Part shown: one piece after another, positions 1 to 3,507 of the stretch | How positions within the stretch are numbered: the first letter of the stretch is position 1 | How the letters are laid out: each line of letters starts with the position of its first letter | Source of the DNA: Pseudomonadota bacterium | Lineage (GTDB): Bacteria; Pseudomonadota; Gammaproteobacteria; Competibacterales; Competibacteraceae | Direction of reading: 5' to 3' | NCBI GenBank assembly: GCA_030917925.1 | Contig: JAUPTV010000290.1 | Span: 1 to 42,516 of the forward strand | DNA length: 42,516 nucleotides | The notes under the pieces: model-generated | Seen by the model: only the letters and a program-made list of their open reading frames with translations | Database searches by the model: none | What the model was told of the DNA's origin: nothing | Made by a program: the position numbers and the translations under genes

Positions 1-119
1 AAAACTGCCCCGGATTTAAAGGCAAGATTGGCGCTCTATCCGCAAAGGACATCTCGATGAGCGTTAAAATGGGAATTTTTATAATGGATTACTGAGAAAA
101 CTCGTGGAGAATAAAGGTT
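1..119. other. left edge, possible tail of an upstream gene
   Basis: One reading frame on the + strand stays open from base 3 to a TGA at 93-95 and encodes about 30 residues. It could be the C-terminal end of a gene starting outside the window, but nothing in the peptide is recognisable. A second frame is open only to the TGA at 58-60. A GGAG at 106-109 is the ribosome binding site of the next gene. Confidence 0.2.
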
Positions 120-611
120 ATGTCTATTCAAGATGATTATGCGACGGTTCGAGAGAATTTGTTTATTGGCCGGTGTCCTGACAATCCCGATGAGGTAGAA
201 GCGATTAAAACCCAGATTGGTGCATCGGCTATTTTATCATTGCAGCAAGATGATTGTTTAAGACATTTCAATATTAACTATGCACTACATGAAAAGCGAG
301 GTCGAAAACTGGGTTTAGTGATGAAACGCTGTCCATTAATAGATCATAATATTCCAGATCAGCAACTTAAACTACCGGAAGCTGTCAATGTCCTCCAGGA
401 GTTGCTGGAGGCTAAACACCGGGTGTATGTTCATTGCACCTTGGGCATCAATCGCGCACCTACGGTAGTACTGGCGTATCTTACCGTCATTGAGAAGATG
501 GATTTAATTAGTGCTCAGAAATGTATTAAGCAAGTCCGCCCACGGGCTGATTTTAGCTGGGGGGCTATTAATGCTTATCATGCGGCCCTTGGGATCAATG
601 GCCTCCGGTAA
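120..611 (+). CDS. dual-specificity protein/glycan phosphatase
   Basis: A 163-residue protein with the Cys-dependent phosphatase signature HCTLGINR (His105, Cys106, Arg112), the CX5R loop, followed by AP as in plant SEX4/LSF-type glucan phosphatases. Asp75 or Asp80, about 30 residues before the Cys, is the likely general acid. The family removes phosphate from proteins, phosphoglucans or nucleotides, and the substrate here cannot be read from sequence. The protein has no signal peptide and should be cytosolic. The ATG has a GGAG about 10 nt upstream. It lies 86 nt before an NADAR gene and a SLOG gene on the same strand, in an AT-rich stretch unlike the rest of the window, so it is probably part of an acquired three-gene cassette. 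Confidence 0.85.
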   Translation: MSIQDDYATVRENLFIGRCPDNPDEVEAIKTQIGASAILSLQQDDCLRHFNINYALHEKRGRKLGLVMKRCPLIDHNIPDQQLKLPEAVNVLQELLEAKHRVYVHCTLGINRAPTVVLAYLTVIEKMDLISAQKCIKQVRPRADFSWGAINAYHAALGINGLR

Positions 612-697
612 AGATAAGCAGGGTTCACTGTGCAGGACTGGAGAGGCGATGCGACGACACTCTGCTTCATCATTCGACCCTATTGGAGATTTTGAAA

Positions 698-1156
698 ATG
701 ATACAAAGTTTTGATAAACAATTCGCCTATTTAAGCAATTTCTTTCCCAGTCCCATTTTGTTAAATGGGCAGGAATGGCCTACAGTTGAGCATGTTTTCC
801 AAGCGGCTAAAACATTGGATTCATCTGAACAAGAGCAGATTCGATTAGCAGAAACTCCGGGAAAAGCTAAACGGCTTGGTCAGAAAGTACATTTGCGATC
901 TGACTGGGAAACTTGCAAGCACGCGGTGATGGTTGAAGCGGTCCGATTGAAGTTCAGTCAATACCCTGAACTCTTAAATCGTTTACTGTCCACCGGAGAA
1001 GAGGAACTGGTTGAAGGCAATACATGGCATGATAATGTTTGGGGAGATTGTCAATGCCCAAGATGTCAAAACATTCCTGGCAGGAATTTATTAGGAACAA
1101 TCCTTATGCAAATCCGGCGAGATCTGGCTGATTATAAGGGGCAATCGCATGTCTGA
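698..1156 (+). CDS. NADAR (YbiA-like) family N-glycosidase
   Basis: A 152-residue protein with the NADAR family landmarks: an N-terminal F..LSNF segment, EHVFQAAK (31-38), WHDNVWG (110-116) and GRNLLG (128-133) near the end. Family members cleave N-glycosidic bonds. YbiA acts on riboflavin intermediates, and other NADAR proteins remove ADP-ribose from guanosine in DNA. The ATG at 698 is chosen over an in-frame TTG at 683 because a GGAG at 685-688 is well placed for it. A cysteine cluster (C118, C120, C123) inside the WGDC region is unusual and could bind metal. The gene overlaps the following SLOG gene by 8 bases, which points to coupled translation and a joint role in NAD or ADP-ribose metabolism. 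Confidence 0.85.
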   Translation: MIQSFDKQFAYLSNFFPSPILLNGQEWPTVEHVFQAAKTLDSSEQEQIRLAETPGKAKRLGQKVHLRSDWETCKHAVMVEAVRLKFSQYPELLNRLLSTGEEELVEGNTWHDNVWGDCQCPRCQNIPGRNLLGTILMQIRRDLADYKGQSHV

Positions 1157-1826
1157 AAGCAAATCAGGACACGCCACGGCGATGACCCTTTCCGATTTCA
1201 TTACTATCATTCAGAGTCAACCAGATGGCGTCATTCTGCTCGAAGGGCGGCGTAATATACCCGTAAGCGATTATGAGCACGCCACGCGCCTTGCACGAAG
1301 CCTTGCGCAACGATTTCCCCCGATTCGATTTCGCTCAGGGAATGCAGAAGGAGCAGACCAAGCTTTCTCCGAAGGCGTAGCACAAGTGAACGCGAGCCGC
1401 TTGCAGGTCATTGCGCCTTATGCATCGCATAGAAAGAGCTTCTGTTATGCAGACGCAATATACGTTACGCCCGACTCATTATCCCGTATTCAGGAGGATG
1501 AGATCGCTTACAAAACTAAGGAGGCAACTCCGAAGAATAAAGGCTTGGTTGACGGGCGAACCGAGAGGAGGCGTCTCGCGGCAAAAGCGGCCTATTTGAT
1601 TCGAGACACCATGAAAGTAACTGGATATTCTGAGGATTTCAGGAAACCCATTTGTGCCCTTTTCTATGTAGATATCAACGACCCGATGGCGGGAGGCACC
1701 GGGCATACCATTCGTGTTTGTGAACAGGAAGGTGTTCCAGTGGTGTTTCAAAACTCATGGAAAGACTGGATTGAGGAAGATGTCGAACAAGCGGATGGAG
1801 GCAATCGGTCTTCTGCCAGTGCCTGA
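1149..1826 (+). CDS. SLOG/YspA-like nucleotide-binding protein
   Basis: A 225-residue protein with a Rossmann-like start (GVILLEGRR, 27-35) and the pattern RSGNAEGAD (62-70). This resembles the nucleotide-phosphate-binding loop of the SLOG superfamily (YspA, DprA, LOG), whose members bind or process NAD-, ADP-ribose- or nucleotide-derived ligands. A further conserved-looking stretch, DPMAGGTGHTIRVCEQEGVPV, lies near the C-terminus and would close the Rossmann fold. The ATG lies inside the end of the NADAR gene (8-base overlap in another frame). NADAR and SLOG genes are known from published surveys to recur together in nucleotide-signalling and conflict systems. The exact ligand is unknown, and the family call rests on the GAD motif and the context. 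Confidence 0.65.
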   Translation: MSESKSGHATAMTLSDFITIIQSQPDGVILLEGRRNIPVSDYEHATRLARSLAQRFPPIRFRSGNAEGADQAFSEGVAQVNASRLQVIAPYASHRKSFCYADAIYVTPDSLSRIQEDEIAYKTKEATPKNKGLVDGRTERRRLAAKAAYLIRDTMKVTGYSEDFRKPICALFYVDINDPMAGGTGHTIRVCEQEGVPVVFQNSWKDWIEEDVEQADGGNRSSASA

Positions 1827-1844
1827 TCCTTAGATTTAGTGCAT

Positions 1845-2040
1845 TAAGTGAAGCTTGACGCTTCTGGCCGGGTGAAAGTCCCGGTCAGGTAAGGAGGACT
1901 AGCCACATACCTGTATCGAGTCTTGCGCGACTGATGGAGTGCTCAGAGCAGGTTTAAACCATGCCCAATGCGTGAACAAGAGTCGTGAAATGTAGATCGA
2001 GAAACCGCTAGGCCAGAGGAAGGTTGTACCTTCCTGAATT
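1845..2040 (+). mobile_element. probable group II intron 5' fragment (domain I)
   Basis: This non-coding stretch contains structured RNA-like elements. There is a hairpin GAAGC-TTGAC-GCTTC (1849-1863), then a stem-loop CCGGG-TGAAAGT-CCCGG (about 1869-1885), then a GGTAAGGAGGACTAGCCA-like segment and GAGAAACCG. These resemble the start of domain I of bacterial group II introns, where a GGGTGAAAGTCCC element is common. No reverse transcriptase/maturase gene follows. The stretch stops at the converging esterase gene, so this would be a truncated remnant. Both boundaries are approximate. Confidence 0.45.
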
Positions 2041-2041
2041 A

Positions 2042-2560
2042 TCAGAGAATTAGAGAGTTTTCTGCTTTAGATAACATTATAGGAATATTCTCTGGATATT
2101 GAATACGATGATGTCCCCCTTCGATCAATTCCATATATCCTTCATTTTTAATCTCATTGAGATAAGGTCTAAAATTAAGAACTTCATCACCTAATTCAAT
2201 GTAGTACAGTAAATAACCTTGGCCTTTAAAAGGCTCGTATGCACTATACTGAGGTACCAAAGGTAATGTTTCTTCAGAGGTAATCATTGACACTGAATAG
2301 ACAGGATTCAATAGAACTGCTTTAGTGTGATATTTCTTTGCAAATAATCTAGCCCACCACCCTCCTAATGAGTGACCTAAAATGATAGGTTCATCTTCCA
2401 GTTTTAAAGCTTTCAATACTATCTCATCGTAGATTTCATAAACTTTATCTACAGATAGCTTCTGATAATCAACGGGTACTCCAGTAAAAGGAATACCTAA
2501 TTGAGTATATCTAGGATTACTCAAACTAGATCCAAACCCATGGAAGATAACTAGATTCAC
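2042..2560 (-). CDS. YqiA-like alpha/beta-hydrolase esterase
   Basis: A 172-residue small alpha/beta hydrolase. It opens with VIFHGFGSS (oxyanion region), carries the nucleophile elbow GHSLGG, and ends with GGHHR, which supplies the catalytic histidine. This matches the YqiA/UPF0227 family of short-chain acyl esterases in size and order. The GTG start at 2560 is favoured because GGAGGG (2571-2566) lies just upstream. The open frame extends further, but that extension reads through the end of the neighbouring gene and has no family match. The gene is clearly AT-rich compared with its right-hand neighbours and converges on the intron fragment, so it probably belongs to the same acquired segment. 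Substrate unknown. Confidence 0.75.
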   Translation of the reverse strand: MNLVIFHGFGSSLSNPRYTQLGIPFTGVPVDYQKLSVDKVYEIYDEIVLKALKLEDEPIILGHSLGGWWARLFAKKYHTKAVLLNPVYSVSMITSEETLPLVPQYSAYEPFKGQGYLLYYIELGDEVLNFRPYLNEIKNEGYMELIEGGHHRIQYPENIPIMLSKAENSLIL

Positions 2561-2618
2561 AGCATCCCTCCAAAGATAAAGGGGTGAGCGAGGGTGACGC
2601 CCCACAGCCGTCAATCTC

Positions 2619-2993
2619 TTAAAAATTGACCCAAGTCCCGCCGCAGCCTTGCCGATTAGTCCAACCATCGCGGTTGCCATTCATCCAGGGACGACGAGGT
2701 TTACCATCCCGAGGCGGGTCGCGGCTATCGCCCCCTTGCAGGCGAATGTCGGCATCCGCGCTGTTAATCCAGTGGCCGCCGCTGCCACTGCTGTTCAACC
2801 ACGCAGGGTCATTCCGGCAATCATTCCAGTTGACGGCCCGCGCTGGATAGGCAGCGATCATTCCGCCGCCCATGATGCCCATAATCACAGCTTTCGACCA
2901 TTTCCCTAGACTGCGCAGAACATCGCGCCGTTTCAGGTCAATTTCAGCTATCCCGTTATCGATCAACGTGTTTTTAAGGATCATTTCCGTCAC
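2619..2993 (-). CDS. secreted Trp-Asn-repeat peptide, candidate RiPP precursor
   Basis: About 120 residues, with no confident family match. Numbering from a TTG at 2996, an N-terminal part carries a twin-arginine-like LKRRDVLRSLGK, a hydrophobic stretch and an ARA cleavage-like site near residue 54. The remaining 70 residues are rich in Gly, Asn, Asp and Arg and contain W-x-N five times: W66-L-N, W76-I-N, W104-M-N, W112-T-N and W122-V-N. The last falls within a C-terminal GGTWVNF. There are two cysteines, C60 and C118. W-x-N followed by Gly is typical of substrates of cyclophane-forming radical SAM enzymes (Xye/Grr-type triceptides), but no such maturase is visible nearby. Possible starts are GTG 2993, overlapping the stop of the gene before it, and ATG 2984. 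Confidence 0.6.
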   Translation of the reverse strand: MTEMILKNTLIDNGIAEIDLKRRDVLRSLGKWSKAVIMGIMGGGMIAAYPARAVNWNDCRNDPAWLNSSGSGGHWINSADADIRLQGGDSRDPPRDGKPRRPWMNGNRDGWTNRQGCGGTWVNF

Positions 2994-3445
2994 CAAGTCA
3001 CCGGGTTGCGCGGCTGGTTTTGAAGGGGTTGCGGCTGTTTCGGTTGTTGCCGCTGTTGCTGAATCGATTGATCCCGATAATTCTGCAACTGTTGTTGAAC
3101 TTCATTCCGGTAGGTCTGTTGACTGTCCTGCAACTGCTTCATCTCCTCCTTGAGCGCATCATTCACCGCCTTGTAGAGTTCGACCGTTTTTTTTACTTGA
3201 TCTAGGTCGCTGGACAAGCTTTGAACCTGAACTTGTAACGCCTGCAATTGGGGATCAGGCTGAGGCAGCAGGGGGGAAACAGCCTGATCCTGCCGCCATA
3301 AATGCCATAAATAGGCATTACTGCCCATACTCAGGAAAATCAACAGAAAACAGACCACGATGAGTCCAATCATCAAGGGATTCATCGCACTAGGCGCGGA
3401 CTCAACACGCATGGAGTCCGCCTGATCAGGGTTTTCATCGGCCAC
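2990..3445 (-). CDS. small coiled-coil membrane protein
   Basis: 151 residues with no recognised family. A polar N-terminus is followed by one strong membrane segment (about residues 22-47, LMIGLIVVCFLLIFLSM). Next comes a long heptad-like coiled coil (about 68-125) and a Gln/Pro-rich tail. The topology suggests a single-pass inner membrane protein with a periplasmic coiled coil. The GTG start has a strong GGAGG seven bases upstream. The gene abuts or overlaps the W-x-N peptide gene downstream, so the two are probably co-transcribed, and it may help the export or anchoring of that peptide (inference). It could also be an unrelated envelope spacer protein. Confidence 0.6.
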   Translation of the reverse strand: MADENPDQADSMRVESAPSAMNPLMIGLIVVCFLLIFLSMGSNAYLWHLWRQDQAVSPLLPQPDPQLQALQVQVQSLSSDLDQVKKTVELYKAVNDALKEEMKQLQDSQQTYRNEVQQQLQNYRDQSIQQQRQQPKQPQPLQNQPRNPVTW

Positions 3446-3507
3446 TGGAGGACCTCCGAATCAGCAGGATCGCGCCGCCCGCCTGGACAGCGCGACCGTA
3501 ATCGAAC

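What the first reader, a model, noticed from the sequence alone, without database searches (positions are those of the whole stretch)
120..1826. Phosphatase-NADAR-SLOG cassette: candidate NAD/ADP-ribose conflict system
Three genes lie in order on one strand in an AT-rich block: a Cys-dependent phosphatase (HCX5R), an NADAR protein (ADP-ribose or pyrimidine glycosidase family) and a SLOG-like protein (RSGNAEGAD), the last two overlapping by 8 bases. NADAR and SLOG proteins are known parts of nucleotide-based defence systems. The phosphatase as third member is not a standard partner that I know. The sequence shows a plausible operon; the defence role is inference.
Basis: partly seen in the sequence, partly recalled or inferred. 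Interest (0 to 1): 0.72.

Follow-up and report, generated by a model that had tools for sequence, protein, structure and literature searches.

The report
Phosphatase-NADAR-SLOG trio, one-off mobile cluster
Three small genes that probably handle ADP-ribose-like or other nucleotide molecules sit together in a foreign-looking stretch of a bacterial genome; the genes are real, but the trio was not seen in any other genome looked at, so it looks like a chance or recent assembly rather than an established defence system.

Summary
Window 120-1826 holds a Cys-dependent dual-specificity-type phosphatase (HCX5R), a NADAR protein with its key residues, and a SLOG-fold protein with no Pfam, NCBIfam or PADLOC match at E 1. 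NADAR and SLOG overlap by 8 bases. The block is AT-rich (43-51% GC against about 60%) and is followed by a group II intron-like fragment.

The reading as a defence trio is only partly supported. No second trio was found: 0 of 35 other SLOG loci has a NADAR near it, 0 of 8 SLOG-bearing genomes gave a NADAR match, and 0 of 25 NADAR loci and 0 of 11 phosphatase loci has the other two partners. The phosphatase occurs in 12 other genomes of the bacterium's family.

What recurs is looser. This SLOG family is sparse and mobile. Of 35 other loci, 10 have a WYL regulator within 5 kb and 5 have a same-strand phosphatase (two Cys-type, one of them overlapping SLOG in an island with BrxL; three calcineurin-like). 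Against 16 control regions the phosphatase link is not significant (p=0.14).

Best reading: a horizontally acquired, probably co-transcribed cluster of ADP-ribose/nucleotide-handling genes, function inferred.

The parts
120..611 (+). DSP-type Cys phosphatase, 163 aa, HCX5R motif (Cys106, Arg112)
   Evidence: Pfam DSPc 54.1 bits, cut-off 33.5; nearest solved structures by sequence are plant phosphoglucan phosphatases LSF2 (1.7e-18) and DSP4/SEX4; motif positions
698..1156 (+). NADAR protein, 152 aa, YbiA-subfamily Glu106, CxCPxC insert; alternative TTG start at 683
   Evidence: Pfam NADAR 109.5 bits; TIGR02464 108.3 bits, cut-off 73.7; phrog_1017 1.8e-41; PDB YbiA 1.5e-24; residues
1149..1826 (+). 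SLOG-fold protein, 225 aa, FRSGNAEGAD and GGTGHT motifs, no LOG-type catalytic Glu
   Evidence: AlphaFold2 model; structure matches; family alignments; phrog_768 9.8e-12
1149..1156 (+). 8-base overlap of the NADAR end and the SLOG start
1836..1926 (+). 91-bp stretch with an 86% identical copy in contig C170 of the same genome, just after a macro-domain gene
1875..2049 (+). group II intron-like fragment, below the gathering score; no intron-encoded protein recognised among the ORFs
   Evidence: RF02005, 24 bits, gathering 49, E 3.5e-4; ORFs
2042..2680 (-). alpha/beta hydrolase-like ORF; body 34% GC, N-terminal part in the neighbouring higher-GC sequence; not part of the trio
   Evidence: UPF0227 E 1.4e-6; GC

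Best explanation
A horizontally acquired, probably co-transcribed cluster at the edge of a mobile region, assembled once and not a conserved trio. The NADAR enzyme most likely cleaves an N-glycosidic bond (ADP-ribosylated guanine or a related reactive ribosyl compound). The SLOG protein most likely binds, rather than cleaves, a nucleotide or ADP-ribose-type ligand. The phosphatase would strip a terminal phosphate from the product or act on a regulator. Together they would clear or sense ADP-ribose or other nucleotide derivatives made during phage or toxin attack. Shown: the families, the fold, the motifs, the layout and the lack of recurrence in what was searched. Inferred: co-transcription, substrates and purpose.
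For: Same strand, 8-base overlap, SD-like sites. AT-rich against the contig. SLOG has no match in the other 95 relatives searched, while its nearest relative found, in a Verrucomicrobia MAG, is 79% identical in protein and 78% in DNA over 609 bases, so it was probably transferred. NADAR has E31, K38 and E106, which by spacing and conservation I equate with E43, K50 and E125 of P. nicotianae NADAR, tied in print to ADPr binding and guanine-ADPr hydrolysis. The SLOG model matches ThsA entries, among them the SLOG domain with bound 3'cADPR (Z 8.9-10.5), and ShosA (Z 12.2), besides DprA and Moco carriers. Phosphatases lie on the same strand as the same SLOG family in 5 of 35 other loci.
Against: No other NADAR+SLOG locus was found, and none of 8 SLOG-bearing genomes, most or all of them MAGs, gave a NADAR match. 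An 86-bp gap separates the phosphatase from NADAR. The phosphatase-SLOG link is not significant against controls (5 of 35 against 0 of 16, p=0.14). The PADLOC scans gave no clear excess of defence proteins near SLOG. The SLOG fold also serves DprA and cofactor carriers, which score as high or higher, so the fold does not give the ligand.
Confidence: 0.42

Rival explanations
1. Hitch-hikers: three unrelated accessory genes that happen to lie together in a mobile island or at the end of an integron cassette array, with no shared function.
For: No recurrence of the trio in what was searched. The phosphatase has varying neighbours in the 11 loci viewed from relatives. The three genes differ in GC. 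The genome has an integron integrase (469 bits, cut-off 265) and a cassette-array-like contig, C170, whose macro-domain gene is followed by the same 91-bp sequence that follows SLOG here.
Against: NADAR and SLOG overlap by 8 bases, unusual for independently captured cassettes (my judgement); no GTTAG-type attC end was found at 1-3500 of the window; all three families fall in one published functional theme.
Confidence: 0.38
2. Plain metabolism: a YbiA-type riboflavin-intermediate N-glycosidase next to a laforin/LSF2-like glucan phosphatase and an orphan nucleotide-binding protein.
For: TIGR02464 over its cut-off; YbiA-type Glu106; the phosphatase's nearest solved structures by sequence are plant phosphoglucan phosphatases.
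Against: No riboflavin or glycogen gene recognised by eye beside the cluster; the NADAR scores higher against a phage-built family (phrog_1017, 142.9 bits) than against Pfam NADAR (109.5), and 535 phage records hold relatives.
Confidence: 0.12
3. A toxin-antitoxin remnant: NADAR as antitoxin of an ADP-ribosyltransferase that lies beyond the contig end.
For: NADARs serve as antitoxins of DarT1 and, for a YbiA-type one, of YarT (PMC11543638 passages; PMC11125620 abstract and section 4 part 1). The contig starts 119 bp upstream of the phosphatase.
Against: No ADP-ribosyltransferase among the six proteins scanned with Pfam; DarT1-linked NADARs have Asp where this protein has Glu106; YbiA and phage NADARs did not rescue from DarT1 in the published test.
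Confidence: 0.08

Closest known systems
NAD/ADPr-processing networks of viruses with SLOG, Macro, NADAR and rhodanese-phosphatase (DUF4326), PMC9503650 (2022; passages read)
   Same: Same kinds of parts: SLOG, NADAR and an enzyme of the Cys-phosphatase superfamily; proposed there to process ADPr derivatives
   Different: There viral, as fusions or viral gene neighbourhoods; here three separate bacterial genes, with a DSPc-type phosphatase instead of DUF4326
E. coli YbiA / YbiA-subfamily NADAR
   Same: Fold family, catalytic Glu of the YbiA type
   Different: CxCPxC insert, best fit to the phage-built family phrog_1017, other gene neighbours
Thoeris ThsA (SIR2-SLOG)
   Same: SLOG fold (Z 8.9-10.5)
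   Different: Stand-alone domain without a SIR2 effector
ShosA (PDB 8zva; its place in a ShosTA system is recalled)
   Same: Same fold (Z 12.2)
   Different: This protein is a single domain of 225 aa; no ShosT-like partner recognised by eye
Plant phosphoglucan phosphatases LSF2/SEX4
   Same: DSP catalytic domain, nearest solved relatives by sequence
   Different: 163 aa, catalytic domain only; HCTLGINR signature

Membership tests
NADAR superfamily | Match to the Pfam NADAR model over its gathering score | tested here: met
   109.5 bits, cut-off 35.1
NADAR superfamily | Active-site Glu and Lys (E43 and K50 of P. nicotianae NADAR) | tested here: met
YbiA subfamily of NADAR | Glu at the catalytic position near the C-terminal end | tested here: met
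   E106, invariant in the set; criterion
DarTG1 (BC4488 NADAR + DarT1) | Asp at that position | tested here: not met
   Glu106
DarTG1 (BC4488 NADAR + DarT1) | DarT ART gene adjacent | tested here: inconclusive
   None among six proteins scanned with Pfam; contig starts at base 1
NCBI DS32_2 antiphage NADAR (NF053876) | Score over the curated cut-off of 240 bits | tested here: not met
   65.1 bits
Dual-specificity phosphatase | DSPc model over the cut-off and HCX5R | tested here: met
   54.1 bits, cut-off 33.5; HCTLGINR
Glucan phosphatase (LSF2/SEX4/laforin) | Activity on phosphoglucan | not testable with these tools
   Only sequence similarity (1.7e-18 to LSF2)
SLOG superfamily | DprA/LOG Rossmann-type fold with Gly-rich loops | tested here: met
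   Z 14.0 to a Moco carrier, 13.0 to DprA, 10.5 to ThsA; invariant RSGNA, G68, D70 and GGTGHT
LOG phosphoribohydrolase | PGGxGTxxE with catalytic Glu (motif recalled) | tested here: not met
   GGTGHTIR here; no Glu at the equivalent place
Thoeris ThsA | SIR2 domain fused to SLOG | tested here: not met
   225-aa protein with one SLOG-type domain; PADLOC lists nothing for gene 3
A conserved phosphatase-NADAR-SLOG system | Recurrence of the trio in other genomes | tested here: not met
   0 of 35 other SLOG loci with NADAR; 0 of 25 NADAR loci with SLOG or this type of phosphatase; 0 of 11 phosphatase loci with either

The most novel reading that the evidence does not exclude
The SLOG protein belongs to an undescribed, horizontally mobile SLOG family that acts as the ligand-binding part of modules in defence islands, often near WYL-domain regulators, with interchangeable turnover enzymes beside it: Cys-phosphatases, calcineurin-like phosphoesterases and, in this window, a NADAR glycosidase. 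The window would then be one natural recombination of such a module.
Probability: 0.22. Interest if true: 0.6.

Novelty: new variant of a known kind. Interest (0 to 1): 0.36.

Why it matters
If the cluster works as a unit it would be a bacterial, non-fused counterpart of the SLOG-NADAR-phosphatase combinations proposed for viruses, and would let their predicted division of labour be tested with three small proteins. Even if the trio is chance, the SLOG family it carries matched no Pfam, NCBIfam or PADLOC model here, is spread over several phyla, and has neighbours worth testing.

Tried and rejected
Conserved trio: rejected on present data. Known PADLOC system: only gene 2 matched, and that a candidate model, PDC-M42C at 3.9e-15. 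LOG-type phosphoribohydrolase: the catalytic Glu is missing. DarTG1: wrong residue at the diagnostic position.

General defence enrichment around SLOG: a PADLOC scan of 117 neighbours of 16 of the 36 SLOG loci listed, by number of proteins, WYL 5, Cas3c-type 4, type I restriction 2, IetA 2, mad3 2, reverse transcriptases (DRT) 2, caspase 2, BrxL 1 and PDC-S26 1. The same scan of 114 proteins from 16 control regions listed mad3 3, mad8 2, E1-E2 2, and PDC-S01, Cas1, Cas2b and AbiEi 1 each. The lists are cut at 25 of 64 and 25 of 104 families, so proteins cannot be counted in full, and the control has more families; I do not claim enrichment. WYL: 10 of 35 against 0 of 16, p=0.014; if the six loci with very similar WYL proteins (by eye) count as one, 5 of 30, p=0.10. 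Phosphatases 5 of 35 against 0 of 16, p=0.14. The profiles used were built largely from proteins of the SLOG loci themselves, so they match those by construction.

Integron cassette: a strict attC pattern (RYYYAAC...GTTRRRY) matched neither the window's first 3500 bases nor C170. A looser look found GCCTAAC and GTTAG-type ends in C170, read by eye as attC sites, and no GTTAG-type end in window 1-3500. So the window's place in a cassette array is a lead only. Promoter and terminator scans gave no more than shuffles do. The phosphatase had no match in 72,556 plasmid or 50,697 phage records at 1e-5.

Dropped or overlapping rows: one search clustered 35 loci, because my ORF caller did not call the SLOG ORF of L005; one search used 36 loci, window included. 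The Rhizobium phage (28-30%) and two IMG/VR relatives (27%, and 52% over 29 residues) were left out of profile A2 and of the neighbourhood counts. From the two partial matches (G921, and a second place in G950) were left out; L080 and L081 repeat L002 and L004, and L046 and L062 repeat L006 and L009, so they were not counted again. Of the 25 NADAR loci, L039 and L042 are one place, and a NADAR ORF was recognised in 21. That call's phosphoesterase profile did not match the metallophosphoesterase annotated about 2.8 kb from NADAR on the Deinococcus plasmid.

Full report
What is there. The window is one whole contig of a 4.2-Mb, 299-contig genome. Three ORFs on the + strand at 120-611, 698-1156 and 1149-1826 encode 163, 152 and 225 aa; the second and third overlap by 8 bases, and all three have SD-like stretches before their ATG. 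Their GC is 0.44, 0.43 and 0.51 against 0.59-0.62 for four other genes of the contig, and third-position GC 0.37-0.48 against 0.66-0.71. A fourth AT-rich gene, alpha/beta hydrolase-like, follows on the other strand. Between them, at 1875-2049, lies a sequence that matches a group II intron model below the gathering score (24 bits, gathering 49, E 3.5e-4). The block therefore looks acquired.

Gene 1 is a DSP-type Cys phosphatase (DSPc 1.9e-14) with HCTLGINR. Its nearest solved structures by sequence are plant phosphoglucan phosphatases (LSF2 1.7e-18). In 96 genomes (own included) 19 have a match at E 0.001; 12 other genomes, all of the same family, have one at E 6e-15 or better, 38-48% identical. 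In the 11 loci fetched from these the neighbours vary (by eye, among others 2-methylisocitrate lyase-like, aldo/keto reductase-like, HypF-like), and the window's NADAR and SLOG find no match within about 1.5 kb. In one of these genomes (G024) a NADAR lies 8.5 kb away on the same contig.

Gene 2 is a NADAR protein (2.7e-31), over the cut-off of the riboflavin-intermediate N-glycosidase model. It carries E31, K38 and E106. By spacing and conservation I equate these with E43, K50 and E125 of P. nicotianae NADAR, which passages of PMC11543638 tie to ADP-ribose binding and guanine-ADPr hydrolysis; that protein was not itself aligned. Glu at the last position marks the YbiA subfamily; DarT1-linked NADARs have Asp and gp30.3-type phage NADARs His. 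It fits a phage-built family best (phrog_1017, 1.8e-41): 535 of 50,697 phage records and 77 of 72,556 plasmid records hold relatives, none at 60% identity or more. It is the only NADAR match of its genome.

Gene 3 had no Pfam, NCBIfam or PADLOC match at E 1. Its relatives were found by sequence: 9 loci in the GTDB contig set (39-79% identity), one plasmid (Microscilla pSD15, 38%) and, more distant, 10 Rhizobium phage records (30%). Profile searches gave 2 of 369 genomes of its class, 1 of 398 of its phylum, itself, 16 of 395 of the phylum of the Paludibacter MAG and 11 of 288 of the phylum of the Chthoniobacterales MAG; the last two counts include the starting genomes. The other 95 relatives searched have no match. 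The nearest relative found, in that Chthoniobacterales (Verrucomicrobia) MAG, is 79% identical in protein and 78% in DNA over 609 bases, so it was probably transferred. An AlphaFold2 model from 10 aligned members (mean pLDDT 84.9, pTM 0.83) matches a Moco-binding protein (Z 14.0, rmsd 2.4, 132 aligned), DprA (13.0, 3.2, 141), ShosA (12.2, 3.5, 154), LOG (11.0, 2.8, 132) and ThsA (10.5, 3.8, 129); Foldseek's best E in the PDB was 5.8e-5 (DprA). Among viral models the best is a protein named transposase of Pseudomonas phage Zuri (4.1e-9), and the third is a DprA-like protein of Vibrio phage VP-1 (1.7e-8); rank 25 (E 6e-3) is named 'Dual specificity phosphatase / DNA processing protein' of Marseillevirus LCMAC101, a name that suggests a fusion; I did not read that protein. 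Invariant residues include R62-S-G-N-A, G68, D70 and G182-G-T-G-H-T. The LOG catalytic Glu is not there, so I take the protein as a binder or sensor rather than a LOG hydrolase (inference).

Is the trio a system? I looked from each gene. From SLOG: of 36 loci (window included; 443 ORFs) only the window has a NADAR, and none of 8 SLOG-bearing genomes gave a NADAR match. From NADAR: 25 loci (15 from relatives, two of them one place, and 10 from phages and plasmids) gave no match to the SLOG, Cys-phosphatase and phosphoesterase profiles. One of them, a Deinococcus plasmid, has a DUF4326 gene next to NADAR and an annotated metallophosphoesterase 2.8 kb further on (DUF4326 7.9e-12); DUF4326 is the rhodanese-phosphatase-like domain that PMC9503650 couples with SLOG, Macro and NADAR. 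From the phosphatase: none of 11 loci. So the trio was not seen twice.

What recurs around SLOG. Cys-phosphatases on the same strand: L095, where the ORF overlaps SLOG by 22 bases and the island also has BrxL (2.1e-126) and DUF2779, and L077, SLOG - 252-aa ORF - phosphatase. Calcineurin-like phosphoesterases on the same strand: L007, L045 and, twice, pSD15. Excluding the window that is 5 of 35 loci, against 0 of 16 control regions about 13 to 46 kb away on the contigs of 16 of these loci; Fisher p=0.14. WYL regulators: 10 of 35 against 0 of 16, p=0.014, or 0.10 if six similar loci count as one. DUF2779: 4 of 35 against 0 of 16. Two loci, both of one MAG, have upstream of SLOG a protein that I took by eye for macro-like, and L008 has a 31-residue match to it; Pfam gave it no match at 0.01, so I do not count it. 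PADLOC scans of neighbours and controls did not show a clear difference.

Mobile setting. The 91 bp at 1836-1926 recur at 86% identity in contig C170 of the same genome. There they follow a macro-domain gene (1.4e-44) whose flanks carry GCCTAAC and GTTAG-type sequences; a foldable attC-like stem (-29 kcal/mol, RNA parameters) lies after it, and a BrnT gene precedes it. The strict attC pattern matched neither contig, so the C170 sites rest on the looser look. The genome has an integron integrase over its curated cut-off near a contig end (469 bits, cut-off 265). So this genome probably has a cassette array, and the sequence that ends one array-like stretch also follows the window's trio. The window itself shows no GTTAG-type end; the link is a lead.

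Mechanism. The best-supported account is a transferred, probably co-transcribed set in which NADAR cleaves an N-glycosidic bond of an ADP-ribosylated base or a related compound, SLOG binds the ligand, and the phosphatase removes a phosphate. The first step rests on homology to tested enzymes; the other two are inference. The rival that the three merely travel together is nearly as likely, given the lack of recurrence.

Literature. Passages of PMC9503650, PMC11833690 and PMC11543638 were read, and of PMC11125620 the outline with abstract, section 4 part 1 and passages. Searches for NADAR+SLOG, NADAR+ADP-ribose+phage, SLOG/WYL/nucleotide/phosphatase, TIR-SLOG/ThsA, DUF4326/NADAR and integron/ADP-ribose terms listed no paper that I recognised, from the listings, as describing this SLOG family or this bacterial trio; most listed papers were not opened, and the library lacks most subscription papers.

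Noticed in passing
G000 contig C170 (L118 1-3780): Cassette-array-like contig: methyltransferase-like fragment (by eye), brnT, macro-domain gene with attC-like flanks; the macro gene is followed by the same 91-bp sequence as SLOG in the window.
   Followed up: partly
G000 contig C149 (L124 7247-8638) and C23 (L125 196-657): Integron integrase over its curated cut-off near a contig end, and a short second ORF like its N-terminal part, preceded by a GTTAGCC site.
   Followed up: partly
window 1875-2049: Group II intron-like remnant without a recognised intron-encoded protein.
   Followed up: partly
L095 1-8371: Island with a PglZ-like end (by eye), BrxL, DUF2779, an ORF that looks glycosylase-like by eye (no Pfam match), a PTP overlapping SLOG, and an AAA-like protein (by eye).
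   Followed up: partly
L072, L074, L075, L076, L077: This SLOG family within 500 bp of very similar WYL-type regulators, in what looks like one lineage.
   Followed up: partly
L133 3998-5085 (Deinococcus wulumuqiensis plasmid pDrdI): NADAR gene followed by a DUF4326 gene, a bacterial neighbour pair like the viral combinations in PMC9503650.
   Followed up: no
window 2042-2680 (-): Alpha/beta hydrolase-like ORF whose body is 34% GC while its N-terminal codons lie in the higher-GC flank, perhaps a junction of the acquired block.
   Followed up: no
L045 5439-5750 and L006 6656-7000: Small ORFs of about 100 aa directly after SLOG, no Pfam match at 0.01, that looked alike by eye but did not match each other by tblastn at 1e-3.
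   Followed up: partly
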